Positions 1,606 through 30,270 of a DNA stretch of 49,615 nt are shown one piece after another. A program made the translations under genes and the position numbers. The notes beneath the pieces were generated by a model, which ran no database searches, was not told where the DNA came from, and saw nothing but the letters and a program-made list of their open reading frames with translations. Origin of the DNA: Verrucomicrobiia bacterium Tous-C4TDCM. Its GTDB lineage: Bacteria > Verrucomicrobiota > Verrucomicrobiia > Verrucomicrobiales > Akkermansiaceae. Where the stretch lies: NCBI GenBank assembly GCA_002304315.1, contig NEUO01000007.1, forward strand, positions 1 through 49,615. Direction: 5' to 3'. The stretch's first letter is position 1, and each line of letters begins with the position of its first letter.

Positions 1606-2016
1606 TCATCTATCGCACGGCATCCCCTCCGAAAGGATGAAGTCGAATGGATAAATCTCCCCGTCGGCCTCGGCGAGGATGGCATTCTCAGGGCGAACGT
1701 CCGTGGCGACGACATTGCCCCGACGCCACGTGAGGGTGGCGAGCATGTCGAGGCGGGTCGGCGGGGACTCGGGGTGCCAACCTTCGCGGTGCATCCACGC
1801 GTAACTCAGTTCGTCTTCAACCTGACGACCGTCGAGGCATTCGCCAAAGGCCGCAGCTTCAAGGCATCTTCCGGAATCACGGGCCCACTCCGCGATTCGA
1901 GCATCGCCGATCTCGCACGGTTGCGTCGGGTCTGTTCGAGGGCTTCCTCTGCGGTAACCCGGCGCTGCTTTTTCGGAGCCATCTGCGGAGCTAAGCAAGC
2001 TAGAGAGGTTCTTCAA
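1606..2016 (-). pseudogene. C-terminal fragment of a polyvalent-protein-kinase-like protein
   Basis: An open frame of 136 codons on the minus strand ends in a segment reading TDVRPENAILAEADGEIYPF. The pattern D-x-x-P-x-N followed by G-x-I-x-P-x-D matches the catalytic end of the small kinase-like domain found in polyvalent proteins of phages and plasmids. The frame has only a TTG start with no clear ribosome site. Family members carry more N-terminal sequence than is present here, so I call it a truncated gene. It lies in a remnant-rich gap between der and the large secreted protein. The kinase assignment rests on one motif. Confidence 0.35.
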
Positions 2017-2231
2017 GGTGAACGATGGGGTAGGAGGACGTCATCAAGGGAAGGCGGACAGCCCGCCCGTCGCGCCAGGGCATCCAGAAACGGCCGGTCC
2101 TTCCATGACCCAGCTGTTCGCGACAACGGCGATCCTTGCCTCCACCGGCTCACTTCAAGCGATCCCATCGGTCTCGCCGAGCAGATGCCCGGTTCGTCTT
2201 GGAAGCAGGTGATAACAAGAAGTCTTGGCAA
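2017..2231 (-). pseudogene. Remnant resembling the C-terminus of the serine hydrolase at 9.4-10.4 kb
   Basis: The minus-strand frame here contains GSWKDRPFLDAL, nearly the same as the extreme C-terminus of the serine-hydrolase gene that ends at 9394 (ASWKDRPFLEALG). The similarity also holds in DNA: 27 bases at 2080-2106 match 9404-9430 with about four differences. The rest of the frame is not recognisable. I read it as a decayed duplicate tail lying upstream of the large secreted protein gene. Confidence 0.3.
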
Positions 2232-2268
2232 AGGAAGCTATTCTGAGATTGTTTCGCCACCTTCTTCC

Positions 2269-5200
2269 ATGAACTCCCCGACGTCGGCACGCACTGGCCT
2301 GAGTCTCTCCTCCCAGCTCGCTCGCCGATGGTTTTCCGCGCTGGCGGGTTGGCTCGCGCTCGCCACGCTGTCTGCCACCGCGCAGATCAATGGCACTTGG
2401 TCCAACCCGGCGGGCGGGTCGTGGGCCACGGCCGCCAACTGGACCAACAGCGTGATCGCCGTTGGCAGTGGCTCGAGTGCCAATTTCAATAACCTCAACC
2501 TTACAGCAGACGCCACTGTTTCGCTGAATGGAGCCCGCACCATCGGCAAGCTCTTTTTCAGCGATACCACGCCAAGCAACGGGTGGATTCTTAATACTGG
2601 CTCCGGGGGTTCACTCACCTTGGCCATTGGCACGGGCACCCCGGAAATCTCGGTGGCCAACGGCACCTCCACCATCAATGCCGTGCTGGCCGGCACCAAT
2701 GGATTTACCAAAACCGGGTTCGGCACCCTGATACTCGGGGCGGCCAACAGCTACACCGGCACCACCCAGATTTCCGCAGGCACGCTGCTGGTGACCGGCA
2801 GCCTGGCGACTGGACCCTCCACCGTGGCCATCGGGGGCACGCTTGCAGGCACCGGGACGATCAACGGCCCGGTCGTGGCAAGCGGCAAGATCGCCCCCGG
2901 CAACGAGGGCGTCGGCACCCTGAGCATCAAGAACACCCTCAATCTGAGCTCTACCGCCCAGACCGTCATGGAGATTGCCAAAACCGGCACCGTGCTCACC
3001 TCCGACCGGGTCACTGACGTCACCACGTTTGCCATGGGTGGCACACTCACCGTCGCGCTGAAAGCGGGCAGTGCCGCGCTGGCCCACGGGGATGTCTTCA
3101 ATTTGTTCTCCGCCACCACCCGGAGCGGCGCTTTTGATTCGGTGGCACTGCCTCCGCTGCCCGTCGGCTACACTTGGAAAACCAGCGAACTGGCCACGCA
3201 GGGCCGGATTTCGGTTTGGGCACCCTACGACCCGGGCGACCTGACCCTCTCGCCGACCACGGATTTGCTCGATGTCGGCTTTGGCCAGGCCGGCACGCTG
3301 TCCCGCACGCTGATCAACGCCAATCCGGATCTTCCTGCGCAGTGGGTCGTGTTCGCTCCGCCCGCCCGCGCCAACTCCGCCACGCTGGCGGAGACGCTCA
3401 GCGGTTTGGTGCCCCGCCAAACCTTGTTCAATCAAGCGATTTCGGATCGTTACCATTTTACCGGCGGGACCACTGGCAATGGCATCAGTGATACCAAGCT
3501 GTTTCCCTCCAGCAACGGCATCCGGGTGACTTACACCCCCAACCCGGCTCAACCGTGGATCACCCCCGACCTGAGTCTGGCAAACACGAACAGCACCATC
3601 GGCTCCGCAGGCGAATCCGGCGGCGGCGCACAGCCGTATTTCACCTGCAAGGGCGAAGGCTTCTGGGGCTTGTCCGCCGACCTCGTGCGCTGCACCACGC
3701 TGAGCATGTGGTACTTCTCGGCCACCGCCGCACGGGCTTCGTCCGCAACCACGATCAGCCACGCCGGAACCTCTTGGAAGGTGTTCATCTTCAAAGACAG
3801 GCCCGCCACCTCCAATTCCCTGCACCAGTTGATCATCACGCCGGATGCCCCGGCCATCATCCGTCCCGCGTCGGACAGCTATTTCAGTGTCACCGGCCTG
3901 CCCCCCTCATGCCGCGTCCATTGTATGGTGTTCTCCAAACCGGGAACGGCCTATTATGATGACGCCACCTGTCTCAAGGTGGCCAAGGCTTGGCTCGCGG
4001 CGGCAGCCCCGCCCGAGACATGGTTGGGATTGCCCGCCCTCACCGGCACACTGCCCGGCGGGCAGAACGCTCCATTGTCCCTGTTCCCGGACTCCACCGG
4101 CCTGAACCCGGGCAGTCATGTCGCCCGCTGGGCCGTCGCGCCCAGCGACTTCGACATTTGGACGCTGCCTGACGGAAGCTTCGGGTCCACCACGCTGCAG
4201 GTCGGAGCCGCAGAATTCACCGTGGACCGGCCCGCCATCGATCTGTCCCCGGCCGTCGGCGCGACCCCGGGTCGCCAACGCATCCGCCTGACGGGCGGCA
4301 ATGGATTTTCACTCGCCGATCCGCTTTTGACCTCCAGCCAGCCCTGGGTAGTACCGATGGCGTCCGAGAACCGCCTTGGGGAAATCGACCTTAGCTTCGA
4401 CACCCGCAATCTGCCCGCTGGCACTCATCAGGCCACCGTCACCATCACGCTTGGCAACACGCGCCAGAACGTCACGGTCCGTCTGACCATCAAGGCGCTG
4501 AATGTGGCCTGCCTGGTCGCCGACCCCTGGCGCAACCGCGTTTACGGCATCGATCAAACCGGTGCCGCGCCGGGTTCGCTGCTGGTGATCGATCCCACCG
4601 ACGCGAGCGTCCTCCGCACGCTGCCCCTGGGTGCTTGGACCACCGATCTGGCGGCGACACCCGATGGGGCCATCCTTTACGCGCTCGGCACAGGGGAGGG
4701 CCGCATCCGGCGGTTTGATCTGGACCGCTTGGTGGAACTCGACTCGCGGGCGATCCCGGATTGGACCAACTCAACGGCCGCCACCACATTGCCTCACCTC
4801 CTCGTCGGCCCCACGGGTCTGCTGTATTTCCTGGGTGCGGAAGGTTCGGCTCCCGCCCTGCGCGTGTTCAACTACGATTCCGGCACGCTGCTCCAGAGCG
4901 TGCGGCCGGCCGGCTCGAATGGGTTTTCCTCGTTTTGCTTCGATCCGGGGAATCCCCGACTGTTGGCTACGACCGCTTCGTCATGGAGCTTCCAGGCCGC
5001 CGCGCGAACCATCGCCATTCCGGTCAACCCGGACGGCCAGTTGGGCGCGATTCCCTCTTTGGGTCTTGATGAAACCGATTCGATCCCGAGCGCTGCCAGC
5101 GGCGCCCGCCTGTTCGCCCCGCCGGAGGGTGGCCCGCTGTATTTCCGCGACTCGGCCATCGCCTCCTCGTCACTGGCCCGCACCTCGCCCTCCTTCGGCA

Positions 5201-8200
5201 GCCGCGTGCTCGCGCTCTCCGCCAACGGCAAGGCGCTGGCCACCCAGTCCGCCGTACTGCGGGCCGATGATGCCAGCAACCTGCTGGCCCTCAACGCCAC
5301 CATGCCCGTGCTCACATTCTCCGCCGACCAGCGGCGACTGGTGGGCTTTGAATCAACAACCAAGACCCTCAAGTCGTTCGATCTCGCCCCGCTGGCCGGA
5401 ATATTGGGCAACATCACCGCTCCGGCGGATGGAAGCGACGGCTTCAACGGCACGCTCGCTTGGGAACCGGTGACCGGGGCTTCGCTCTACCATGTTTACA
5501 TGAGCACCGATTCGGCCGCCTTGCGACCCGCCGGCGGCGCACGGCCGGCTGATTCGCTGCGGGTCGGATCGGTCGCGGACAATCGCCTGCAGGTACCCAC
5601 GACCCTGTCCCCGGGCAGTGGCTGGTTCTGGCGCGTCTACCCGGTGACGCTCAACGGCATCGGCGTGGGAACCGTCCGCAGTTTCACCGTGCCGGCCGCG
5701 TTTCCCGCTGCTCGCGAATTGCGCTTCGATGCCATCCGCGGGCTGACATTCGACCAGCGCATCGTGCCGCTCGCGCTGGCTCCTGGCGCGCCCGCGTGGA
5801 CCGCCAGCAGCGACCAGCCGTGGCTCGTTGCAAGCGGCACCGGCAGTACCCTCGAAGCCGTCGTCCAACCGACCTCCCTGGCCGCCGGTTGGTATCGCGG
5901 CACGATCAGCGTGCAGTGCGCCGGCACCACCGCCCGCATCCCGGTCACCCTGCGGGTGCGCGCGCCGAAAATCACCCTGGTCCACAGCGATCCGGAATTG
6001 TCCCGCGTCTATGCCGTGCATGAGGATACCTCGGACGATCCGGCGTTCGGCGGCCAGGTGCTGACGATCAACGCGGCCACGACCGCCATCGTCCGCCAGA
6101 CCCCGGCCGGGCGCTCGGTCACCAGCCTGGCCGCTCATGTGGCGGACGACCGCCTTTATCTCACCAACTGGCGGACCGGCGCACTGGTGGCGATCAACCG
6201 CACGACCTTGTCCGAGGAACAGCGCTGGCCGTTTCCACCCTTTGCGGGGGTGGGCTATTCACGGGAAGATGCCCATCAGGTCGCCGCTGGCGGCCCCGGC
6301 CGCGTGATAGTAGAAGGCGGCGATCAAACGATCGCGGCCCGCTGGTTCGATACCACCACCGGCACCATCGTCGCCCAAAGCCTGCTCAGCGCGGGCAACG
6401 GCCGGTTCGGGCCCGATGGACTGACCTATTACCACGGCGTGATGAACTCCTCCTACGCCCTCCAGAAATACGACCTCTCCGGTGGCTCGCTGGCGTTGCT
6501 GAAGTCCCAGCAGCCCACGAGGTCTCTCGGCTACTCCGCCCCCTTGCGTTCACTGGTGGTGGCTCCCAACGGCGAGCGGCTGTTCTGGCACGCCACGGCG
6601 TTCACCGACGAACTGGTGGAAATCAACAACTACGGCCAGATCGTCCATGATTGCGCCACGGACGGCGCCTACGCGGTGACCTCCGCCCGCATTGTGAACA
6701 CCTCCAGCGCCGCCACCTTGTTCACCCTTCCGTTCACCACCGACCTGCTGGCCGTTTCCCATCCGTCGCGCAAGCTGTTCACATTCCGCGCCGCGCCCGC
6801 CGCCGGTGAAGCGATGTTCCAAGTGACGAATCTGGAATCCGCTCTCGCGCTGGGCACCACCGAACCGGCCTCGCCCATTGCCAACGGCGCGGTGGTCAAC
6901 GGCAGCCTCTCCACCTTGACCTGGACCGCCGATTCGCTGGCGAAATCCTACCGGGTTTTCTTCGGCGACAACGCCGCCGCCGTCAGTGCCGCAGGGGCCG
7001 GATCTCCATTGGAAATCGCCGCCACGCCGCTGACCACCGCCACGCTTCCCGAACCACTGGTTCCAGGCCGCACCTATTACTGGCGCTTGGACCGGGTCGG
7101 ACACTACGGCGGCGACGAAGGCGACGTCCGCAGCTTCGCCGTGGCACCGGTCGTGCTCTCGAAAGCGGCCTCCACCATCCAGCAGCCGATCCAAGTGCCG
7201 GTGCCGCGGACGGCGCTCGACCTCACCGCTCCGGCGGCCGTTTCCTGGCAGGCGACGACGCCCACGGCATGGATCAGCCTCGCGGCCACCAGCGGCAGCA
7301 CACCCGCGACCCTGTCGTTCGACATCAATAAGACCGGGCTCGCGGCCGGCACCCACACCGGCGTGATCCGCGTGACCGCCGACGGTCGGACGCTCGACCA
7401 TCCGGTCACGCTCACGCTGCTGGCCACCAATTACACCCGGATTGTTTCGGATCCCTCGCTGCCACGCGTCTACGGCATCAATCAGGCGGCCGTTTCCGCG
7501 ACCGATCCGGCCTATCTGGTGGTGATCGACGCCGCCACCGGCAACGCTCTGTCATCCGCTCCGGTCGGAACCGCCGCCACCGACCTGGCGGTTCACGTCG
7601 CGGATAACCGCATCTATGTGACCAACTGGTATGGCGGCAAACTGCTGGCCCTCAACACCACCACACTGACCGAGGAACGGCAGTATGCCTTCGGCCCGCG
7701 CTATTCCACCACCGATGCCTACCTCGTCGCCGCCGGTCCCGCGGGCCGCGTGATGGTGGAGGCCAGCGACCAATCCATCAGCATCCAGTTGCTCGACACG
7801 GCTGCGGGAACAATCGCGGGGACTTTCTCCACCCGCCAGGGTGGCGGCGAGTTCGATCCCGCCGGGCGCTACTATTGGCACGGCACTAATAACATTTCGA
7901 ACGCCGCCTTGCAGAAACTCGACACCCAGACCCATCCCTTCACCCGCACCGCCTCGCTGCGGCCCACCTCGATGCTGAGCACCTTCGGCTCCGGGATTCT
8001 CACCGTTTCCGGCGACGGTGGCCGCATTTTCTGGAACGGCAACATGTTCGACACCACCCCGACCTCGCTCTGGTATCTGGCAAGTCACATCTTCGCCTCC
8101 AACACCGACGGTTCGCGCGCACTCGGCTCCACCGTCCTGTTCAACACCGTGGCCAGAACCACCGTGCTGACCCTGCCGCGAACTGCGACCGACGGCGCAT

Positions 8201-8577
8201 GGAACCCCGACACCGACCGCTGGTTCTACCTTAGTGCCGGCCAGCTCTATTCCTTCACCGCCCCGGCACCCGTCGCCGCCGCTCCCTCGCCGAACCTCGC
8301 CTCCACCACGGCGGGCGCGGACACCGCCGGGCTGTTCGGCGATTTCCTGCCGGTTACCGGGCACTTGATCGTGGATGACAGTTTCATCCTTCGTTTCCGC
8401 CGTGCGGCCGGTGATGCAGCCGTGCCGCTTATTGAGACTTCCACCGATCTTCTCACTTGGGAGCCACTACCGGAGCAACCTGTGACCGCCGTTGCCGGCG
8501 AGGACGGCGTGGAAACCATGGAGTCCGCTATCCCGCTCGCCGGTCCCAAGCGCTTCTTCCGCATCCGCCGCCACTAG
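2269..8577 (+). CDS. Giant secreted protein with beta-strand repeat, three BACON-like/propeller modules and a C-terminal 'STDLLTW' module
   Basis: A 2102-residue exported protein of unknown role, probably at the cell surface. Residues 1-42 form a signal peptide (arginine-rich start, hydrophobic WFSALAGWLALATLSATA). An autotransporter-associated beta-strand repeat with FTKTGFGTLILGAANSYTG lies near 145-180. Three related modules follow, with propeller starts near residues 744, 1234 and 1721. Each has a BACON-like domain (W...L.AGT..G.I.V), then a YVTN-type propeller opening with DP.L.RVYGI or a variant. Fibronectin-III-like segments (A.SYRVFF, YYWRL) sit near 1060 and 1547. The last 70 residues carry ETSTDLLTWEPL and end in FFRIRRH. 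The frame stays open upstream to 1774, but the signal peptide fixes the start at the ATG at 2269. The ribosome site is weak. Confidence 0.85.
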   Translation: MNSPTSARTGLSLSSQLARRWFSALAGWLALATLSATAQINGTWSNPAGGSWATAANWTNSVIAVGSGSSANFNNLNLTADATVSLNGARTIGKLFFSDTTPSNGWILNTGSGGSLTLAIGTGTPEISVANGTSTINAVLAGTNGFTKTGFGTLILGAANSYTGTTQISAGTLLVTGSLATGPSTVAIGGTLAGTGTINGPVVASGKIAPGNEGVGTLSIKNTLNLSSTAQTVMEIAKTGTVLTSDRVTDVTTFAMGGTLTVALKAGSAALAHGDVFNLFSATTRSGAFDSVALPPLPVGYTWKTSELATQGRISVWAPYDPGDLTLSPTTDLLDVGFGQAGTLSRTLINANPDLPAQWVVFAPPARANSATLAETLSGLVPRQTLFNQAISDRYHFTGGTTGNGISDTKLFPSSNGIRVTYTPNPAQPWITPDLSLANTNSTIGSAGESGGGAQPYFTCKGEGFWGLSADLVRCTTLSMWYFSATAARASSATTISHAGTSWKVFIFKDRPATSNSLHQLIITPDAPAIIRPASDSYFSVTGLPPSCRVHCMVFSKPGTAYYDDATCLKVAKAWLAAAAPPETWLGLPALTGTLPGGQNAPLSLFPDSTGLNPGSHVARWAVAPSDFDIWTLPDGSFGSTTLQVGAAEFTVDRPAIDLSPAVGATPGRQRIRLTGGNGFSLADPLLTSSQPWVVPMASENRLGEIDLSFDTRNLPAGTHQATVTITLGNTRQNVTVRLTIKALNVACLVADPWRNRVYGIDQTGAAPGSLLVIDPTDASVLRTLPLGAWTTDLAATPDGAILYALGTGEGRIRRFDLDRLVELDSRAIPDWTNSTAATTLPHLLVGPTGLLYFLGAEGSAPALRVFNYDSGTLLQSVRPAGSNGFSSFCFDPGNPRLLATTASSWSFQAAARTIAIPVNPDGQLGAIPSLGLDETDSIPSAASGARLFAPPEGGPLYFRDSAIASSSLARTSPSFGSRVLALSANGKALATQSAVLRADDASNLLALNATMPVLTFSADQRRLVGFESTTKTLKSFDLAPLAGILGNITAPADGSDGFNGTLAWEPVTGASLYHVYMSTDSAALRPAGGARPADSLRVGSVADNRLQVPTTLSPGSGWFWRVYPVTLNGIGVGTVRSFTVPAAFPAARELRFDAIRGLTFDQRIVPLALAPGAPAWTASSDQPWLVASGTGSTLEAVVQPTSLAAGWYRGTISVQCAGTTARIPVTLRVRAPKITLVHSDPELSRVYAVHEDTSDDPAFGGQVLTINAATTAIVRQTPAGRSVTSLAAHVADDRLYLTNWRTGALVAINRTTLSEEQRWPFPPFAGVGYSREDAHQVAAGGPGRVIVEGGDQTIAARWFDTTTGTIVAQSLLSAGNGRFGPDGLTYYHGVMNSSYALQKYDLSGGSLALLKSQQPTRSLGYSAPLRSLVVAPNGERLFWHATAFTDELVEINNYGQIVHDCATDGAYAVTSARIVNTSSAATLFTLPFTTDLLAVSHPSRKLFTFRAAPAAGEAMFQVTNLESALALGTTEPASPIANGAVVNGSLSTLTWTADSLAKSYRVFFGDNAAAVSAAGAGSPLEIAATPLTTATLPEPLVPGRTYYWRLDRVGHYGGDEGDVRSFAVAPVVLSKAASTIQQPIQVPVPRTALDLTAPAAVSWQATTPTAWISLAATSGSTPATLSFDINKTGLAAGTHTGVIRVTADGRTLDHPVTLTLLATNYTRIVSDPSLPRVYGINQAAVSATDPAYLVVIDAATGNALSSAPVGTAATDLAVHVADNRIYVTNWYGGKLLALNTTTLTEERQYAFGPRYSTTDAYLVAAGPAGRVMVEASDQSISIQLLDTAAGTIAGTFSTRQGGGEFDPAGRYYWHGTNNISNAALQKLDTQTHPFTRTASLRPTSMLSTFGSGILTVSGDGGRIFWNGNMFDTTPTSLWYLASHIFASNTDGSRALGSTVLFNTVARTTVLTLPRTATDGAWNPDTDRWFYLSAGQLYSFTAPAPVAAAPSPNLASTTAGADTAGLFGDFLPVTGHLIVDDSFILRFRRAAGDAAVPLIETSTDLLTWEPLPEQPVTAVAGEDGVETMESAIPLAGPKRFFRIRRH

Positions 8578-23223: not shown

Positions 23224-23658
23224 TCATACCGGCACCACCAGACCTTCCTCCTCGGCGAGCTTCTTCTGGTTCCCGTCGAAGGTGAGGAAATGGGTCGAAT
23301 TCATTTTCAGGGCGCTTGCCACATGGAGGATATCGAACCCTCGGTGACCTCCTGCGAGCGTGCGCAGGGAGGACAGGCGCTTGGCCTCATCGACCACATC
23401 GGCGAGATTGGAGGTGGCAACGATCAACCGGCCTTGAGCGATGGCAGCCTCAAATCCAGCCCAATACAGAGCGGCGCAACCCGCCGGGATGGCCTTTCGG
23501 AACTCGGAAAACCTCAAGGCATTCCCGAACTCGAAATGAGTCAGGCTGTTGAGGTGGAGCGGCCTCGTGTTTTGGGCAGACCAAGCCACCGCCTTTTGGC
23601 TATTGGCATCGCTTCCGTAGAGTGAAAAAAGGAAGCTGGTATCACAGGCGATCACCAT
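23224..23658 (-). CDS. VapC-like PIN-domain toxin
   Basis: A 144-residue PIN-domain ribonuclease, the toxin of a type II pair. The acidic residues expected in the active site are present: Asp6 (ACDTS), Glu43 (HFEFGNALR), Asp109 (GFDILHVASAL) and Asp128 (LTFDGNQ). The start codon overlaps the end of the antitoxin gene by 7 bases, so the two are translated together. The RNA target cannot be told from sequence. It is convergent with the ABC-F gene. Confidence 0.88.
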   Translation of the reverse strand: MVIACDTSFLFSLYGSDANSQKAVAWSAQNTRPLHLNSLTHFEFGNALRFSEFRKAIPAGCAALYWAGFEAAIAQGRLIVATSNLADVVDEAKRLSSLRTLAGGHRGFDILHVASALKMNSTHFLTFDGNQKKLAEEEGLVVPV

Positions 23659-23903
23659 CGACCGCCAGCCTCCGCAAGAATTTCAGCCGATTGCTCGGCA
23701 CTCAAAACGGGATCCCCGCTGCGGTCTCGCAGCACTTCGGGACTGGATGCCCAGTCGATCACTTGAGCCGTCTGGGCGCTTTCCGGGCTCAGCCTGGCGA
23801 TGACAACGCCTCGTTGGGTGATGAGCACATCTTCCCCGGCGCTTATCCAGCGCAGTACGCTCTTGTAGTGGTTCCTCAGATCTCGAACCGTCGCGATCCT
23901 CAT
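23652..23903 (-). CDS. Phd/YefM-family antitoxin
   Basis: An 83-residue antitoxin with the typical Phd/YefM start MRIATVRDLRNHYKSVLRWI and GEDVLITQRGVVIARLSP: an N-terminal DNA-binding and dimerisation region, then a short C-terminal toxin-binding tail. It lies immediately upstream of the PIN toxin gene and overlaps it by 7 bases. The pair should repress its own promoter. The frame is open further upstream, but only this start gives the family N-terminus. Confidence 0.85.
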   Translation of the reverse strand: MRIATVRDLRNHYKSVLRWISAGEDVLITQRGVVIARLSPESAQTAQVIDWASSPEVLRDRSGDPVLSAEQSAEILAEAGGRW

Positions 23904-23914
23904 TGTAGCACAAA

Positions 23915-23941
23915 AATGTAGCCACCTTCTACGCGCGTCAA
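23915..23941 (-). promoter_or_regulatory. Candidate promoter/operator of the PIN toxin-antitoxin pair
   Basis: Minus strand: TTGACG, 15 bases, TACATT, with the ATG 11 bases later. The hexamer GCTACA occurs twice here, 7 bases apart, the first overlapping the -10 box, and could be a binding site for the antitoxin. Confidence 0.35.
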
Positions 23942-24043
23942 GTCCAATTCCCTTTGGGCGTCGAGTTGGCGGACCTCGGTTTTCAACGCTCTCGCTCAGG
24001 ATGAAGAAACAGAGGGCGGCACAACCCGATTCGGAACATGAAA

Positions 24044-24165
24044 GGTTTCCCAAGGCGGGTTTCCCAAGAGACAGGAAGTTTTCTGCAACGCACATCATGC
24101 GCAGTGGTTTCCCAAGCGGGTTTCCCAAGGGACAGGAAGTTTTCTGCAGGAAGTTTTCTGCAACG
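24044..24165. repeat. Tandem direct repeats, units built from GGTTTCCCAAG and GGAAGTTTTCTGCA
   Basis: A unit of about 43-47 bases (GGTTTCCCAAG, CGGGTTTCCCAAG, GACAGGAAGTTTTCTGCA) occurs at 24044-24090 and again from 24106 to 24148. A third partial unit (GGAAGTTTTCTGCAACG) follows directly to 24165. Within a unit, TTTCCCAAG is itself doubled. Too few copies, and too little spacer, for a CRISPR array. Confidence 0.85.
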
Positions 24166-24247
24166 CCGGATTCACGCGGAAAAGACCCAAGTGAATCCGT
24201 GAGAACCCACTCCATGCGCAGCTACTCGGAGGGGCTCTGATTACCCG

Positions 24248-24538
24248 TCACCGGTGGAGCGCCTCAAGAAAGGCCTCCGGGTGGCATTCGGCCACGCGCA
24301 GAAGGGCGCGGGCGGTGCCTTCGGGCTGGCGGTGACCCTGCTCCCAGTTTTGCAAGGTCCGGGGGCTGATCCCGATGAGGGTGGCAAAGCCGGTCTGGCT
24401 GAGACCCAGCTTTTTGCGGATTGCCCGGGCATCGGGTGACTTGAGAGTGGTCGTGCGCGCGGCTCTCTTCTTGCCTCGCAGGATCGCTCCGCCTTCCTTG
24501 AGGCTGGCGGCAAGTTGCTGGAACAGTTCTTCTTTCAT
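24248..24538 (-). CDS. HigA/NadS-like helix-turn-helix antitoxin
   Basis: A 96-residue DNA-binding protein with an XRE-type helix-turn-helix at residues 44-69 (GLSQTGFATLIGISPRTLQN, then WEQGHRQPEG). Proteins of this shape are antitoxins of RelE/HigB-type toxins and repress the operon. Its ATG overlaps the toxin stop codon as ATGA (24535-24538). The toxin-first order is the rule in higBA loci. Confidence 0.85.
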   Translation of the reverse strand: MKEELFQQLAASLKEGGAILRGKKRAARTTTLKSPDARAIRKKLGLSQTGFATLIGISPRTLQNWEQGHRQPEGTARALLRVAECHPEAFLEALHR

Positions 24539-24876
24539 GGGAATTCGGTTTCGATGATGGAGCGCAAGACCCGGAGCTGGGCGGCCGTGAGCGTGTCTTG
24601 CTCGTTTTTCGGGTAAGCAAGGAGCAGCAGGATCGTGTCTCCGGGAACATACCAATAGTAGATGACCCGCAGGCCTCCTCGCTTGCCCCGCCCGGATCCT
24701 GCCCAGCGCAGCTTCCGCAAGCCGCCGGAGCCGCGGATGAGATCTCCGCGTTCCGGGCCGGCCATGAGAGCCCATTGCATGGCGTTCAATTCGTCGTCCG
24801 GAAGATGCTCGCCCGCGAGGCGGGTGAAGATCGAGGTCTCGCGGAAAACGAATCGCACGTGGGAACCATCCGTCAT
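24535..24876 (-). CDS. HigB/RelE-like toxin
   Basis: A 113-residue protein of the RelE/HigB fold, expected to cut mRNA on the ribosome. The family core is clear: GGLRKLRWAGSGRGKRGGLR, then VIYYWY and ILLLLAYPKNEQDTLT. It lies upstream of, and overlaps by 4 bases, its antitoxin gene. The palindrome at its start codon may be the operator. Confidence 0.85.
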   Translation of the reverse strand: MTDGSHVRFVFRETSIFTRLAGEHLPDDELNAMQWALMAGPERGDLIRGSGGLRKLRWAGSGRGKRGGLRVIYYWYVPGDTILLLLAYPKNEQDTLTAAQLRVLRSIIETEFP

Positions 24877-24955: not shown

Positions 24956-25984
24956 TCATTCGTCCTTTTCAGGAGCGGCGTCGGGAGCATTCAGAATCAC
25001 GGGCTTGAAATAGCCTTCGATCTTGTAGCTCTTCACCCTGCCCGAAGTCTCGTCGATCTCGTAGAACTCGACCGAGATCCATCCGCGGAGCCGCGAACCC
25101 GGCTCCCCGATCGCGTCCTTCAGCTTCATCGCCTTCTTCCTCACGACCCAACGAAGGGGAGTTGGCGAAGAAGGGTATTCCGCCTTGAACTCGCAAGTGA
25201 ACTGGTGCTTCGCATCCACTCGCACGGTCAAGACCCCTGTGTAAGCGGGAAATCCTCCCCAAAACTCCAGTTTCAAACCGTCTCCGGACTTCCCGGCATC
25301 GCAGAAATCCAACGCGTGCTCACCTTGATGGGTCGAGCTGCAGTTCGCCGTCCGCTCGACGAGCAAGAGGTCGTCCGCATCGACCTCCCCATCCGTGGCA
25401 TCTTCCAAGCTTCCATCGGAATGCTCCACGATCCAAGGCCGCCGGCGCGTCTTGGTCTTGCTGAAAAACTCGGAATTCAGCGTGGGATCAAGAACGGCCT
25501 CCGCCACGAGTTTGTCCTCACACTCTCCATGCCGGGGATCGCGAGCAAGCGCGCGCCGGGTCGCGAACGAAGTCTTCCACAAGCCAGCCTTCTGGCAGAC
25601 ATCGATGACCTCAACGATCCGCTGGTACTCGACCGCCGCATCGCCGCGGATGCGAACTGCCTGGTCCTTGTTCCGCTTGGCCCGCTCCTCGAGCAGTTCA
25701 AGCAGGCCATCGAGTGTCAGCTTGTCTTTTTTCACCACAATCCCTCCGTCGACTTTCACGTTGATGACGATCTCGTCCTCCTCCTGCGCTGCGTCATCGG
25801 AATTGGCCGGCACCGCGACTTTCATCTTCGTCTCCGCAGCCAAAAAGTCCCGCAGCTTCGCCAGTTCTTCGACCGACTTCTCCAGCTTCGCCACCCGCTC
25901 CGTAAGCTCTTCGACCGTCGGCCCGGCGATGGCAGACGAAAGCATGGCGGAGTGCAGGATAGCTGCGATGATTCTGAATTCCAT
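24956..25984 (-). CDS. Exported protein with coiled coil and ExbD-like domain
   Basis: A 342-residue protein. A hydrophobic start (residues 3-20) is probably a signal peptide. A coiled coil (VEELTERVAKLEKSVEELAK) follows at about 24-50, then an ExbD/TolR-type periplasmic domain at about 70-145 (EIVINVKVDGGIVVKKDKLT, AVRIRGDAAVEYQRIVEVID). The last 190 residues are not recognised. Normal ExbD has an N-terminal membrane helix with a conserved aspartate that forms the proton path; none is seen, so a proton-driven role is doubtful unless the hydrophobic start is kept. The gene 53 bases upstream encodes a small ExbB-like membrane protein. Confidence 0.6.
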   Translation of the reverse strand: MEFRIIAAILHSAMLSSAIAGPTVEELTERVAKLEKSVEELAKLRDFLAAETKMKVAVPANSDDAAQEEDEIVINVKVDGGIVVKKDKLTLDGLLELLEERAKRNKDQAVRIRGDAAVEYQRIVEVIDVCQKAGLWKTSFATRRALARDPRHGECEDKLVAEAVLDPTLNSEFFSKTKTRRRPWIVEHSDGSLEDATDGEVDADDLLLVERTANCSSTHQGEHALDFCDAGKSGDGLKLEFWGGFPAYTGVLTVRVDAKHQFTCEFKAEYPSSPTPLRWVVRKKAMKLKDAIGEPGSRLRGWISVEFYEIDETSGRVKSYKIEGYFKPVILNAPDAAPEKDE

Positions 25985-26570: not shown

Positions 26571-27395
26571 TCACTCCACCCCCGCCGGGCGGACCTGGCG
26601 GTGGGTGTATTCGGCGAAGCTGATCTTGCCGTCGCCATTGCGGTCGGCCTCTGCGAAGATCGCTTCGAGCACGCCCGGACCGGAGGGCCGCAGGACGGCG
26701 GTGAATTCGCCGAAGGTCAGGAAACCGTTGCCGTCGAAGTCCAGCGCATTGAAAGACAGCCGGGCATCGTAGGCTTCGAACACGTCGAGCGATGCGGGCA
26801 TGACCAGCGGAACGGATCCCTTGTTCTTGAACTCCGCAACGGAAAGCAGGCCGTTGCGATTCTTGTCGGCGCGGCGGAAGGCCTTCGCGTTCGACTTCGC
26901 CGCGCCGGGGCGGTGGACCGAGAACTCGTCGGTATCCAAGCTGCCGCTGGCGTCGGTATCCAGTTCCTCGAAGGTCACCGCACAGCCGTCGGCGATGTCC
27001 GCCGCCAGTGCCGCCTTCTTTTCCTTCCGCGTCTGCTTCGGCCCGGCGGGAATGCCGGACTGATAGATCACGGGGTCGATTTCGATCGCCTCATCGTAGG
27101 GATCGAGGACCGGATCGTCGTCGACACCATCGAGCGTGTAGAAAATCACATTCGGGTCATCGCCGCGCTTGAGCCAATCCGGATCCCAGCCGCCGGGCAA
27201 CCAATCGTCCGGAGCCGGGTCTTCGATGACATCGGGGACTTCACCCTCGTCGCCTTCTTCGTCGATGACTTCGTCATCGGCTGGAACGTCTTTTTCGACC
27301 GGGGCGAAGGGCAGGATGAACACGGATTCCTGTGAAAATGCAGGGCTGGTGCCGCAGGCGATCAGGAAGGCGGAAAGGAACAGGGTGGGCTTCAT
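26571..27395 (-). CDS. Secreted EF-hand calcium-binding protein
   Basis: A 274-residue exported protein. Signal peptide (MKPTLFLSAFLIACGTSPAF), an acidic proline-rich region (residues 30-110), then four EF-hand loops: DTDASGSLDTDE, DKNRNGLLSVAE, DFDGNGFLTFGE and DRNGDGKISFAE. All four have acidic residues at positions 1 and 12, so calcium binding is likely. The role beyond that is unknown. It is a single gene with its own terminator. Confidence 0.85.
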   Translation of the reverse strand: MKPTLFLSAFLIACGTSPAFSQESVFILPFAPVEKDVPADDEVIDEEGDEGEVPDVIEDPAPDDWLPGGWDPDWLKRGDDPNVIFYTLDGVDDDPVLDPYDEAIEIDPVIYQSGIPAGPKQTRKEKKAALAADIADGCAVTFEELDTDASGSLDTDEFSVHRPGAAKSNAKAFRRADKNRNGLLSVAEFKNKGSVPLVMPASLDVFEAYDARLSFNALDFDGNGFLTFGEFTAVLRPSGPGVLEAIFAEADRNGDGKISFAEYTHRQVRPAGVE

Positions 27396-27490
27396 GGGGA
27401 TGTTTGAGGGAGGAAGTTCAGACCGGAATCATCCGGCTCGCGAAGCATGACGGGCATCGGACGCGGTCCTTGGAAAAAATCGAGGGAAAT

Positions 27491-29476
27491 TTAAAACTGG
27501 AGCCCCAGCTTCAACAAAAGGCTGTTTTCAGAATCCCCTCCATCGCGCCATTCGGTGCTAGAGACCGCGTCAAAAAACAGCAAGCCGCTCGGCGGCACCC
27601 AGCGCAGGCCGCCTTCCAGCAACAGCGAATCGCGCTCCGGGGAAACCGGGGGCACCACGAAGTTGCCGGCCGGCCCGCCCTGCGCCATTCCGCCGTCCGC
27701 CAGGATCGAGCGATGCCGCCATCCCAGCACCGCGTGGGGCAGCCAATCGCCGGCCGCCGTGTCGAATCGCCCGGCCATCTGCCAGCCGACCAGCGAGGTC
27801 ATCAACCCGAAATCCCGGCCCGCCATGCTGACCCCGCCGGCAAAGGGCTCTTGGTAGCCTTCCAGTGAGCCCCACGAGCCCTCGACTCCGGCCACCGGAC
27901 CGTGGGTCCAGCACCCCGCTTCGAACTCCCGGGTCATCCACAGCGACAGGAGCTGCACCGTGGCGTCCTGGCCTGCCGGATACAGCATGCCGCCCGCTTG
28001 ACGCCGCAGGTCTTGGTCGAAAGTTCCCAGCGTATGGGTCAAGGCCGCATGATACCCGTTCTGCCGCCAGTCCAGCGACCACGAGAAGGCCGCGCCCTCC
28101 GCGTCCACCGTGCCGAACCCTGGCACTTCCATCCGTGAATCGATCCCCGCGAGGGAAACCCCGGCCTGCCACGACGGGGAAAGCAGCCACGACATCCCGG
28201 CCTCGATCCTCCATGAGTCCGACTCCACCCCGCCCTTGCCCGATGGCAGATTGAAATCCATCGCCTGGAAATCCGCCGACAGCCATCCGCCGCCCCCCGT
28301 CCGCGAAACATCCGGCCGCCCCGAAACCGGACCGCGGAGCAAGGCGGAGAGCCGATAGGGCTGCGATTGGGACAAAATCAAAGAGCCGGCTTCCGGAGTC
28401 GCGGCCGCCAAAGCCCCCCCGGGATCCGCATCGTTACCGGCATCGGGATCTGGATCCGGATCAACATTGTCCACCCGGGAAATCGCCGTGGCCGCAGTCA
28501 CCAGATCCCGGCTGCCGCCGGTCATCCGGGGAGTATTCATCGGCCCGACCCCGTCCAAGCTCGCAAGGAGGCCCGCGGCCGACGCCTGCCCGGTCGCAAT
28601 CGACTTCGTGGAGATCAGCGGGTCTTCCGCCCGCACCTTAAGATTCACGGCAAGGAGCTGCTCCAGATCGGGCGCGGGTTCACCCGGAGCCGGTCGCAGC
28701 ACGGGCCGGGTAGGATTCGCGGAGAAGACAAATGCAGGTTCCACCGGAGCCTCCTCGACGGGGTTCGCGATCCAAATTCCTTCCGATGGCTGCCGAGTCC
28801 GCGCCGGGCTGGGACGGGTCGCGACGCCCGCCCGATCCGCCCTTTCCACCAAGCCGGGGCGCAGCGTCACAAGGGCCGGCTCCGGCGAACCCGTGGATGT
28901 TTCCACCGCGACCGCCTTTTCCCCGGGGACCGGCAAAGCAACCCGGGCGGCGACCGGGAGTTCCGGCGAACCCGGCCGCTGGAACAGGGCGACGAACAGC
29001 GCGACCATCGCCGCTGCCACTGTCGCGAAACCGGCGACCCGGCGACCCGGCGCGGGTGCCGAAAAAATCCGCCGCAGCCGTCGCCGCTCCCACCAACCGG
29101 GAGCCCCCAACGGCGGGAGCAGGAGCTCTGCCCGATGACAAAAATTCCGAATTGCCAGGCCCTCAGATCGCAAATCCTCATCGGTCTCCATCCGGGCCTC
29201 CAGAGGCGAGCATCGCTCCACTGGGAGTTCTCCCAGCGCCCAGGCCGTGAGGTCTTCCTCCTTCACCGCCGTGGAAAGCCTCGCAACCAGATCCTTCCGC
29301 TGTGCCGGCTCGAATTCGATCTCGCCGGGATCCAGCTCTCGGGCCAGCAGTGTCATGAACTCCGCCGTTGCCAGCAGCTCCGCTTTCTCCGCTGCCGACA
29401 GATCGATCTCGCCGGGGTCCAGCGCGGCCCCGAGCATCCGCTCGAAGTCATCGGGTGTTTCGCCGGAATGCTTCAT
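27491..29476 (-). CDS. Anti-sigma-like domain fused to an outer-membrane beta-barrel
   Basis: A 661-residue protein with an unusual layout. Residues 1-145 are cytoplasmic: a duplicated LDPGEI-type helix motif at 20-25 and 48-53, then an anti-sigma-like stretch LTAWALGELPVERCSPLEAR. Residues 147-166 are one membrane helix (VAGFATVAAAMVALFVALF). Residues 170-365 are a proline-rich periplasmic linker. Residues 370-661 look like an autotransporter-type beta-barrel of alternating strands ending in LLLKLGLQF, with the terminal phenylalanine expected of outer-membrane barrels. Its ATG overlaps the stop of the ECF sigma gene (ATGA), with a GGGAGGG ribosome site. I infer one polypeptide linking the outer membrane to a sigma factor. 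The barrel and anti-sigma calls are by pattern. Confidence 0.75.
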   Translation of the reverse strand: MKHSGETPDDFERMLGAALDPGEIDLSAAEKAELLATAEFMTLLARELDPGEIEFEPAQRKDLVARLSTAVKEEDLTAWALGELPVERCSPLEARMETDEDLRSEGLAIRNFCHRAELLLPPLGAPGWWERRRLRRIFSAPAPGRRVAGFATVAAAMVALFVALFQRPGSPELPVAARVALPVPGEKAVAVETSTGSPEPALVTLRPGLVERADRAGVATRPSPARTRQPSEGIWIANPVEEAPVEPAFVFSANPTRPVLRPAPGEPAPDLEQLLAVNLKVRAEDPLISTKSIATGQASAAGLLASLDGVGPMNTPRMTGGSRDLVTAATAISRVDNVDPDPDPDAGNDADPGGALAAATPEAGSLILSQSQPYRLSALLRGPVSGRPDVSRTGGGGWLSADFQAMDFNLPSGKGGVESDSWRIEAGMSWLLSPSWQAGVSLAGIDSRMEVPGFGTVDAEGAAFSWSLDWRQNGYHAALTHTLGTFDQDLRRQAGGMLYPAGQDATVQLLSLWMTREFEAGCWTHGPVAGVEGSWGSLEGYQEPFAGGVSMAGRDFGLMTSLVGWQMAGRFDTAAGDWLPHAVLGWRHRSILADGGMAQGGPAGNFVVPPVSPERDSLLLEGGLRWVPPSGLLFFDAVSSTEWRDGGDSENSLLLKLGLQF

Positions 29477-30000
29477 CGCTCGTGGCCCTCCCGTTGCCAA
29501 TGGTCGCGCATCGCCTTAACCGCGTGATGCAGCAGGTAGCCGACATGTCCCTCGGTGATCCCGGTGATCGCACTGATCTCCCGGTAGCTGAGGCCCGCTT
29601 GGAATTTCAGCCGCACCAGCTCCCGCTCACGCTCCGGCAGGGAATCCACCATCCTCAGCAAAGACGCCGATTGCTCGCTCGCTTCAAGCCGTGCCGAGGG
29701 CGCCGGCACCCCGTCGAGATCCTGCTCGAGGTGCCCGTCCTCCAAGGGGACCAGCCGGAACTGCTTGCGCCGGATATCGATCAGCCGGTTCCGACAAACA
29801 CTGAAGAGCCATGCTGGGAGATTCTGCGGACGCTCTTCGATCGACTCCGCCGCCAGTTTGAGAAAGGTGTCCTGCACCGTATCGCGCGATAGCTCACGGT
29901 CGCCACAAAGCCCGAGGGCATACTTCAGCAATGGCTTCTCATAGCGCTCTAGGGCGCCAAGCAACCATTCTTCCGAAGGCTCGGGGGACAGGGCGGACAT
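29473..30000 (-). CDS. ECF-type RNA polymerase sigma factor
   Basis: A 175-residue sigma-70 family protein. Region 2 is seen in LLKYALGLCGDRELSRDTVQ, DTFLKLA and WLFSVCRNRLIDIRRKQ; region 4 in LPERERELVRLKFQAGLSYR and EISAITGITEGHVGYLLHHA. The frame is open upstream (ATGs at 30066 and 30114); I chose 30000 because it gives the usual ECF length and N-terminus. Its stop overlaps the start of the anti-sigma/barrel gene by 4 bases, so the two are made together and that protein is its likely regulator. Confidence 0.9.
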   Translation of the reverse strand: MSALSPEPSEEWLLGALERYEKPLLKYALGLCGDRELSRDTVQDTFLKLAAESIEERPQNLPAWLFSVCRNRLIDIRRKQFRLVPLEDGHLEQDLDGVPAPSARLEASEQSASLLRMVDSLPERERELVRLKFQAGLSYREISAITGITEGHVGYLLHHAVKAMRDHWQREGHER

Positions 30001-30270
30001 GGGAGTGCAATTCGGCACCGGGCTGTCCTCCAGCCGCCGGGATGGATCCGACGACGGAAGGGCCATGGTTAGGGAAGGGATATCGAGGATCGGATGAAAA
30101 TCCGCTCGTGGCATGACGGCGGAGACGGGAGTTCCTTGGGAAATTCTTGAAAAAATGTCGCGCACCGATTCATCGAAACTCCCACGACCGCTCGGATCCA
30201 AGCGCCCGCGTCCTCTTTCCCATCAGCGCGTGCCCTATCCAGCATGGGCGACTGCGTGCCTCTAACAGCC
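30001..30270. other. Upstream region of the ECF operon
   Basis: 270 bases between the DUF971 gene and the sigma gene. An A/T-rich patch lies near 30140-30160 (minus strand ATTTTTTCAAGAATTTCCC). I see no convincing promoter pair or further gene. A CTAACAG heptamer sits at 30262. Confidence 0.4.

What the first reader, a model, noticed from the sequence alone, without database searches (positions are those of the whole stretch)
27491..30000. ECF sigma factor coupled to an anti-sigma domain fused to an outer-membrane barrel
The 661-residue product has an anti-sigma-like cytoplasmic domain, one inner-membrane helix, a Pro-rich periplasmic linker of about 200 residues and a C-terminal barrel-like region ending in Phe. 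Its start overlaps the stop of an ECF sigma gene (ATGA). In FecA-FecR-FecI type signalling the barrel, anti-sigma and sigma are three proteins; here barrel and anti-sigma appear to be one chain spanning both membranes. The linker length is plausible for crossing the periplasm. Such a protein would face a folding problem (one end in the inner membrane, the other in the outer), so it may be cleaved after export. I do not know a described family with this layout.
Basis: partly seen in the sequence, partly recalled or inferred. Interest (0 to 1): 0.85.

Follow-up and report, generated by a model that had tools for sequence, protein, structure and literature searches.

The report
Anti-sigma factor tethered to autotransporter barrel
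A bacterial gene switch (a sigma factor) appears to be held in check by a single protein chain that runs from the cell interior through the inner membrane to a barrel in the outer membrane; the same layout is already known from gut Bacteroides, but here it is built on a different kind of barrel in a different phylum.

Summary
On the minus strand an ECF sigma gene (29473-30000) overlaps by ATGA a 661-residue protein (27491-29476): class I-type anti-sigma domain, one membrane helix, Pro-rich linker of about 194 residues, C-terminal barrel. The barrel is a type Va autotransporter translocator (Pfam, Foldseek). The fusion is intact behind the sigma gene in 7 of 18 genomes of the genus, so it is no assembly error. 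Its anti-sigma domain belongs to a Verrucomicrobiota family that elsewhere carries YfbK/VWA-type or other non-barrel C-termini, again beside an ECF gene. A conserved ECF-type promoter (CCAAGGAA-N13-CGTCATGC) precedes the sigma gene and, in 4 of 4 genomes that have it, a secreted EF-hand protein gene. They are reported only from Bacteroidota, and sequence kinship could not be tested. Best reading: a Dma-like relay from outer membrane to RNA polymerase in Verrucomicrobiota, made by giving a local anti-sigma family an autotransporter barrel. Sigma binding, spanning of both membranes and the trigger are inferred.

The parts
29473..30000 (-). ECF sigma factor, 175 aa; stop overlaps next start by ATGA
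   Evidence: Sigma70_r2 E 4e-11, Sigma70_r4_2 E 1.8e-13; 67-93% identical in 5 aligned relatives; 45% identical to the ECF beside a YfbK-type anti-sigma gene
27491..29476 (-). Fusion protein, 661 aa: anti-sigma domain, membrane helix, linker, autotransporter barrel
29270..29455 (-). Residues 8-69: two copies of an F-x3-L-x3-LDPGEI-type repeat (a further degenerate copy in three relatives), helices in a low-confidence part of the model
   Evidence: no clear match in the other anti-sigma proteins
29120..29260 (-). Residues 73-119: class I-type anti-sigma core of three helices, no Hx3Cx2C zinc motif seen
   Evidence: helices in model; hhalign to 32 other anti-sigma N-termini prob 98.9, E 1.8e-17; joint profile matches solved anti-sigma factors
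28982..29032 (-). Residues 149-165: single membrane helix after an Arg-rich stretch
   Evidence: hydropathy 2.36, 7 K/R in 20 residues before and 2 after
28391..28972 (-). Residues 169-362: Pro-rich linker, 194 aa (177-232 in the seven), probably disordered
   Evidence: pLDDT below 50 for residues 118-359; 18-39% identity; dN/dS 0.26-0.79
28337..28390 (-). Residues 363-380: helix just before the barrel, invariant QPY
27494..28288 (-). Residues 397-661: 12-stranded type Va autotransporter barrel ending in Phe
   Evidence: PF03797 E 3.3e-20; Foldseek BrkA, EspP, NalP beta-domains, target TM 0.69-0.75 among the ten best
30111..30139 (-). Predicted ECF promoter CCAAGGAA-N13-CGTCATGC, about 110 bp before the sigma start
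27445..27473 (-). Second copy of the promoter (1 mismatch), about 50 bp before the EF-hand gene
26571..27395 (-). EF-hand protein, 274 aa, signal-peptide-like start (by eye); predicted regulon member
   Evidence: Pfam EF-hand; relative in 4 of 195 family genomes, all with the fusion; promoter in front in 4 of 4
24956..25984 (-). ExbD/TolR-like domain protein with signal-peptide-like start (by eye); neighbour, membership uncertain
   Evidence: PF02472 E 1e-18; also at the locus in G039 and, cut short and recognised by eye, in G125

Best explanation
A two-gene relay from outer membrane to transcription. The ECF sigma factor is held inactive at the inner membrane by the N-terminal class I-type domain of the fusion protein. 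The chain crosses the inner membrane once, spans the periplasm with a disordered tether and ends in an autotransporter-type barrel that BAM places in the outer membrane. A change at the outer membrane (barrel state or assembly, a ligand, or envelope geometry) opens the tether to a periplasmic protease and then to an intramembrane M50 protease; sigma is released and transcribes its own operon and a secreted EF-hand protein through CCAAGGAA-N13-CGTCATGC. Shown computationally: domains, one conserved chain, sigma linkage, conserved promoter-like motif, EF-hand co-occurrence. Inferred: sigma binding, simultaneous insertion in both membranes, proteolytic release, the signal. Evolution: in a Verrucomicrobiota ECF/anti-sigma family the usual C-terminal part was replaced by an autotransporter barrel; the layout then resembles Dma of Bacteroidota, probably by convergence.
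For: Fusion with sigma in front in 7 of 18 genus genomes. Anti-sigma domain homologous to N-termini that have an ECF frame next door in 33 of 34 loci (the exception lies at a contig edge; two of the 33 sigma matches are weak, 7e-8 and 5e-5), hhalign E 1.8e-17; joint profile of 43 matches solved anti-sigma factors: 3hug 5.6e-6, DdvA 0.0054, ChrR 0.0063, RskA 0.045. Barrel. No barrel match in the frames of the 34 non-fusion loci; in 28 autotransporter loci no anti-sigma or sigma profile match at E 0.01 within the stretch read. Barrel and N-terminal part under purifying selection, linker relaxed. Motif: 7 perfect matches in 18 genomes, all at this locus (about 0.05 expected in 101 Mb by my arithmetic). 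EF-hand gene only in fusion-bearing genomes, 4 of 195, with the motif in front even where two genes on the other strand lie between (G064). M50 family in 18 of 18. In Bacteroides the vesicle phenotype of a deletion of the same-layout Dma2 needs its sigma gene das2.
Against: The profile of the seven fusion N-termini alone finds no anti-sigma factor in the PDB; the NCBIfam anti-sigma match is only E 0.53. In the joint profiles an unrelated peroxisomal transporter outranks RskA (0.021, 0.0039). No complex model of sigma with residues 1-145. Model confidence is modest: mean pLDDT 53.9, residues 1-70 at 37-49. At up to 2 mismatches the motif has 94 hits against 32 for the reversed control, in all 18 genomes, and two one-mismatch hits are in genomes without the fusion. 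No EF-hand relative in 3 of 7 fusion genomes (one is 61% complete). Prc next door is a genus-wide arrangement and M50 proteases rang in 14 of 14 control genomes, so neither is specific.
Confidence: 0.68

Rival explanations
1. Split after export: the chain is made as one but is routinely cut in the linker, so the barrel works as an ordinary outer-membrane protein and the anti-sigma half as a separate inner-membrane regulator; the fusion only fixes their ratio.
For: The linker is poorly conserved (18-39%) and looks easy to cut; many autotransporters shed their passenger (recalled).
Against: Gene fission would be simple, yet none of the 7 genomes shows it. Linker length is kept within 177-232.
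Confidence: 0.17
2. Assembly sentinel (a special case of the best explanation): the barrel is a test client of BAM. When insertion fails, its C-terminal peptide ending in Phe stays in the periplasm, is read by a PDZ protease, and the tethered anti-sigma domain is destroyed.
For: Beta-signal-like C-termini ending in Phe in all seven; PDZ protein and Prc genes nearby; DegS/RseA logic (recalled).
Against: A Prc-like gene lies beside YggS in all 13 other YggS loci read, 11 of them from genomes without the fusion. The one well-supported predicted target outside the operon, an EF-hand protein, does not look like an outer-membrane chaperone.
Confidence: 0.25
3. Arrested autotransporter: the inner-membrane anchor stops secretion, so part of the linker is left as a loop in or outside the barrel and is the sensing element.
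For: Helix plus 12-strand barrel as in type Va translocators; linker directly before the helix.
Against: The fusion helix carries QPY (7 of 7; 0 of 30 compared autotransporter frames have a QPYxL-like string), and 10 of those 30 have an RDVGDR-type helix instead; no test of surface exposure.
Confidence: 0.15
4. Not a regulator: the N-terminal domain no longer binds sigma and the protein is an inner-membrane-anchored structural tether of the outer membrane.
For: Residues 1-69 are an added element; the anti-sigma core is diverged.
Against: ATGA coupling to the sigma gene in 7 of 7, N-terminal part under purifying selection, conserved motif before the operon.
Confidence: 0.06

Closest known systems
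[quoted passage not shown] the founding 2024 PNAS paper is not held)
   Same: Order of parts: N-terminal anti-sigma domain, membrane helix, long disordered tether, C-terminal barrel; for Dma1 and Dma2 an ECF sigma factor is the cognate partner.
   Different: Verrucomicrobiota, not Bacteroidota; barrel is a type Va autotransporter translocator (barrel type of Dma not stated in what I read); sigma and anti-sigma domain resemble those of Verrucomicrobiota YfbK-type pairs; predicted target is an EF-hand gene, whereas Dma1 acts through nigD1. Sequence kinship with Dma not tested.
Verrucomicrobiota ECF / anti-sigma-YfbK (VWA) pairs
   Same: Homologous anti-sigma domain and membrane helix and homologous sigma (45% identity).
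   Different: C-terminal part is vWF_A, VWA and YfbK_C (two full-length proteins of six scanned) or another non-barrel part.
FecA-FecR-FecI cell-surface signalling
   Same: Outer-membrane barrel, inner-membrane anti-sigma and ECF in one pathway.
   Different: One chain instead of two; Pfam finds no FecR, STN, plug or TonB-dependent receptor domain.
IutY of Pseudomonas putida (PMC9249621, passages seen)
   Same: A fusion that shortens a cell-surface signalling chain.
   Different: There sigma and anti-sigma are fused and the barrel is separate.
Type Va autotransporters (EstA, AaaA, BrkA, EspP, NalP)
   Same: Barrel fold and preceding helix.
   Different: No secreted passenger and no obvious signal peptide; the N-terminus is an anti-sigma domain with an internal membrane helix.

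Membership tests
Dma family | N-terminal anti-sigma domain, one membrane helix, long disordered tether, C-terminal barrel | tested here: met
   (disorder read from low pLDDT in a seven-sequence model)
Dma family | Adjacent cognate ECF sigma gene | tested here: met
   ATGA overlap in 7 of 7
Dma family | Sigma of group ECF21 | not testable with these tools
   no ECF21 model at hand; a tested relative is a Verrucomicrobiota ECF at 45%
Dma family | Found solely among Bacteroidota (authors' statement) | tested here: not met
   three of the seven genomes match records titled Verrucomicrobiaceae, Akkermansiaceae and Akkermansia
Dma family | Sequence homology to Dma1-3 | not tested
   no Dma sequence was at hand
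Dma family | Control of outer-membrane vesicle formation | not testable with these tools
   needs an experiment
Class I anti-sigma factors | N-terminal helical anti-sigma domain homologous to known members | tested here: met
   through the wider family; not by the seven sequences alone
Class I anti-sigma factors | Binds the cognate ECF | not testable with these tools
   no complex prediction on offer
Type Va autotransporter | 12-stranded C-terminal barrel with preceding helix | tested here: met
Type Va autotransporter | N-terminal signal peptide and exported passenger | tested here: not met
   anti-sigma domain and a membrane helix at 149-165 instead; no signal-peptide predictor was run
FecR/FecA signalling | FecR, STN and TonB-dependent receptor domains | tested here: not met
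   only PF03797 found in the fusion at E up to 1

The most novel reading that the evidence does not exclude
Probability: 0.4. Interest if true: 0.75.

Novelty: new variant of a known kind. Interest (0 to 1): 0.6.

Why it matters
The Dma layout was reported as confined to Bacteroidota. Finding it in Verrucomicrobiota with a well-studied barrel type suggests that tethering an anti-sigma factor to the outer membrane is a general solution that may evolve repeatedly. The autotransporter barrel makes the open question (how can one chain be inserted in both membranes, and what does it sense) testable with existing BAM and autotransporter tools, and a predicted promoter gives a ready reporter.

Tried and rejected
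Assembly error: rejected, seven genomes. Separate start for the barrel: no Met after M1 is invariant in the seven-row alignment; GTG/TTG starts were not examined. Prc next door as partner protease: a Prc-like frame lies beside YggS in all 13 other YggS loci read (recognised by eye; 11 from genomes without the fusion), so no specific link. N-terminal repeats as moved copies of the segment after the anti-sigma core: only weak hits, none convincing. Other anti-sigma/autotransporter fusions: none in the 34 non-fusion loci (their frames complete after the longer fetch), none in 28 autotransporter loci; 386 order genomes gave six full-length hits, all in the genus. The broad searches scored at most 6, 8 or 3 candidates per genome; the genus search scored all. 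Anti-sigma matches listed without a locus were fetched only in part (5: four have a sigma frame in front; L096, E 0.0069, has none and is taken as a false hit). Rows dropped: L061, L095 and L096 left out of alignment A4; L037, L045, L057 and L086 further left out of A5. Off-locus one-mismatch motif hits (six) were neither proved nor disproved; in G039 and G064 one lies at the same place before the same gene (G108 with two mismatches). In the window alone, 2 matches at up to 3 mismatches against 0.47 expected is weak (7 of 100 shuffles reach it); the weight rests on the genus scan. The three named loci are taken to be contigs of G125, G129 and G133 (equal contig lengths), not further genomes. 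Papers: ten searches listed no title or abstract start on an anti-sigma/autotransporter fusion; several demanded all terms and returned 0-2 papers, and the library lacks many journals.

Full report
What is there. On the minus strand, 29473-30000 encodes a 175-residue ECF sigma factor and 27491-29476 a 661-residue protein whose ATG overlaps the sigma stop. Pfam finds Sigma70_r2 and Sigma70_r4_2 in the first and, at E up to 1, only the Autotransporter beta-domain (residues 398-626, E 3.3e-20) in the second. The AlphaFold2 model, made with seven sequences, has a modest mean pLDDT of 53.9: helices between 8 and 138 (pLDDT by ten residues 37-49 up to residue 70, 69-77 for 71-110), a membrane-length helix 147-163, pLDDT below 50 for 118-359, a helix 363-380 and twelve long strands between 397 and 660 at 46-89. 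The ten best Foldseek matches in the PDB are autotransporters (AaaA, EstA, BrkA, EspP, NalP), with target TM-scores of 0.69-0.75 for isolated beta-domains. The single strongly hydrophobic N-terminal stretch (149-165) follows an Arg-rich segment, the linker (169-362) is 194 residues long with 14% Pro, and all seven chains end in Phe. At 0.36 nm per residue (assumed) the linker could reach about 70 nm, more than a periplasm needs.

Is it real. A search of 195 genomes of the family found matches in 27; seven are the full fusion and twenty match only the barrel part. All seven lie in the genus, where 18 genomes were searched with every candidate scored; all have the ECF gene directly in front with the same 4-base overlap. 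In 386 genomes of the order only six full-length hits appeared, all of the genus, with three candidates scored per genome. Identity to the window protein is 42-62% in the anti-sigma core, 18-39% in the linker and 40-83% in the barrel. Five pairwise comparisons give dN/dS of 0.14-0.36 for residues 1-130, 0.13-0.17 for the helix and barrel, 0.18-1.06 for the 21 codons around the membrane helix, and 0.26-0.79 for the linker, whose alignment is uncertain. This is the pattern of two working ends joined by a tether.

What the N-terminus is. The profile of the seven N-termini, searched in 387 genomes of the phylum, matched in 39; outside the fusions most matches cover about 40-105 profile positions around 'LTAWALGEL'. 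Of 34 non-fusion loci read, 33 have an ECF sigma frame directly in front; the one without starts 181 bases from a contig end. Of six non-fusion products scanned with Pfam, two are vWF_A/VWA/YfbK_C proteins, one has a borderline vWF_A match, two have no match and one a zinc-finger (zf-HC2) match just under the cut-off; many of the other C-terminal ends printed look YfbK-like by eye. None of the 34 has the barrel. hhalign between the seven and 32 of these N-termini gives probability 98.9 and E 1.8e-17 over the core and membrane helix. The joint profile of 43 finds solved anti-sigma factors: 3hug (the record says membrane protein; that it is the anti-sigma RslA is recalled) 5.6e-6, DdvA 0.0054, ChrR 0.0063, RskA 0.045, with an unrelated peroxisomal transporter at 0.021 between them. 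The 32 alone find 3hug 8.9e-5 and RskA 0.0063, again below that transporter at 0.0039. The seven alone find none, so the link to known anti-sigma factors runs through the wider family. No Hx3Cx2C zinc motif is seen in the seven; about half of membrane-bound class I anti-sigma factors lack it (PMC7406223, passages). The window sigma is 45% identical to the sigma beside a YfbK-type gene. The simplest history is that a local sigma/anti-sigma pair exchanged its C-terminal part for an autotransporter barrel. An added element, two 'F-x3-L-x3-LDPGEI' repeats (plus a degenerate one in three relatives), precedes the core.

Output. Aligned upstream regions of six sigma genes share CCAAGGAA-N13-CGTCATGC, five exactly and the sixth (G129) with two mismatches, with an unconserved spacer, about 110 bp before the window's sigma start; this is of the GGAA/CGTC type usual for ECF promoters (recalled). 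Over 18 genomes there are seven perfect matches, all at this locus: six before the sigma gene, one before an EF-hand gene. About 0.05 would be expected in 101 Mb by simple arithmetic with equal base frequencies. The EF-hand protein (window 26571-27395) has relatives in 4 of 195 family genomes, all fusion-bearing, and each of the four has the motif in front with none or one mismatch, also in G064 where two genes on the other strand lie between. Against this, at up to two mismatches the motif gives 94 hits and the reversed control 32, in all 18 genomes, so at that looseness it is not specific; two of the six off-locus one-mismatch hits are in genomes without the fusion.

How it probably works. 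The cytoplasmic domain holds the ECF sigma factor; the chain crosses the inner membrane, spans the periplasm and ends in the outer membrane; a change at the outer membrane leads to cleavage and sigma release; sigma then transcribes its own operon and the EF-hand gene. M50 proteases are in 18 of 18 genomes, as in all 14 control genomes. A Prc-like gene is a neighbour of YggS throughout the genus and proves nothing, although Prc and RseP act on IutY (PMC9249621, passages). Which change is sensed is open: assembly of the barrel, a ligand, or the distance between membranes.

Known or new. Dma2 is described as an N-terminal anti-sigma domain, a transmembrane helix, a long disordered tether and a C-terminal barrel, next to an ECF21 sigma gene, and Dma proteins as found solely among Bacteroidota; deletion of dma1 or dma2 raises vesicle production, for dma2 only if das2 is present (PMC13088901: abstract, passages and one section; the founding 2024 paper is not held). 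It is not filed as a Dma: the phylum differs, and ECF21 membership and sequence kinship were not tested. It is a new variant of a known kind, with an autotransporter translocator as the outer-membrane part; ten paper searches listed no report of such a fusion (see Tried and rejected).

Noticed in passing
window 24956-25984 (-): ExbD/TolR-like domain behind a signal-peptide-like start (by eye), apparently without the usual membrane anchor; also beside the fusion in G039 and G125.
   Followed up: partly
window 1774-8577 (+): 2267-residue frame with a passenger-associated-transport repeat (PATR), perhaps a large autotransporter-like surface protein.
   Followed up: no
window 23224-24215 and 24248-24876 (-): Two toxin-antitoxin-like pairs: PIN with Phd/YefM-like (the latter under Pfam's cut-off), and RelE-like with an HTH-like frame seen by eye.
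   Followed up: no
L130, L131, L132 (G039, G064, G108): One- or two-mismatch copies of the promoter motif at the same place between a CoA-transferase-like gene (by eye) and a conserved secreted-protein-like gene; a further regulon member or another ECF's promoter.
   Followed up: partly
   Followed up: no
L171 (G079): GBBH-like gene followed by the ABC-F-like gene that lies beyond the system in the window, with no sigma/fusion genes between: looks like the empty site.
   Followed up: partly
window 29270-29455 (-), residues 8-69 of the fusion: LDPGEI repeats before the anti-sigma core, varying in number between relatives; function unknown.
   Followed up: partly
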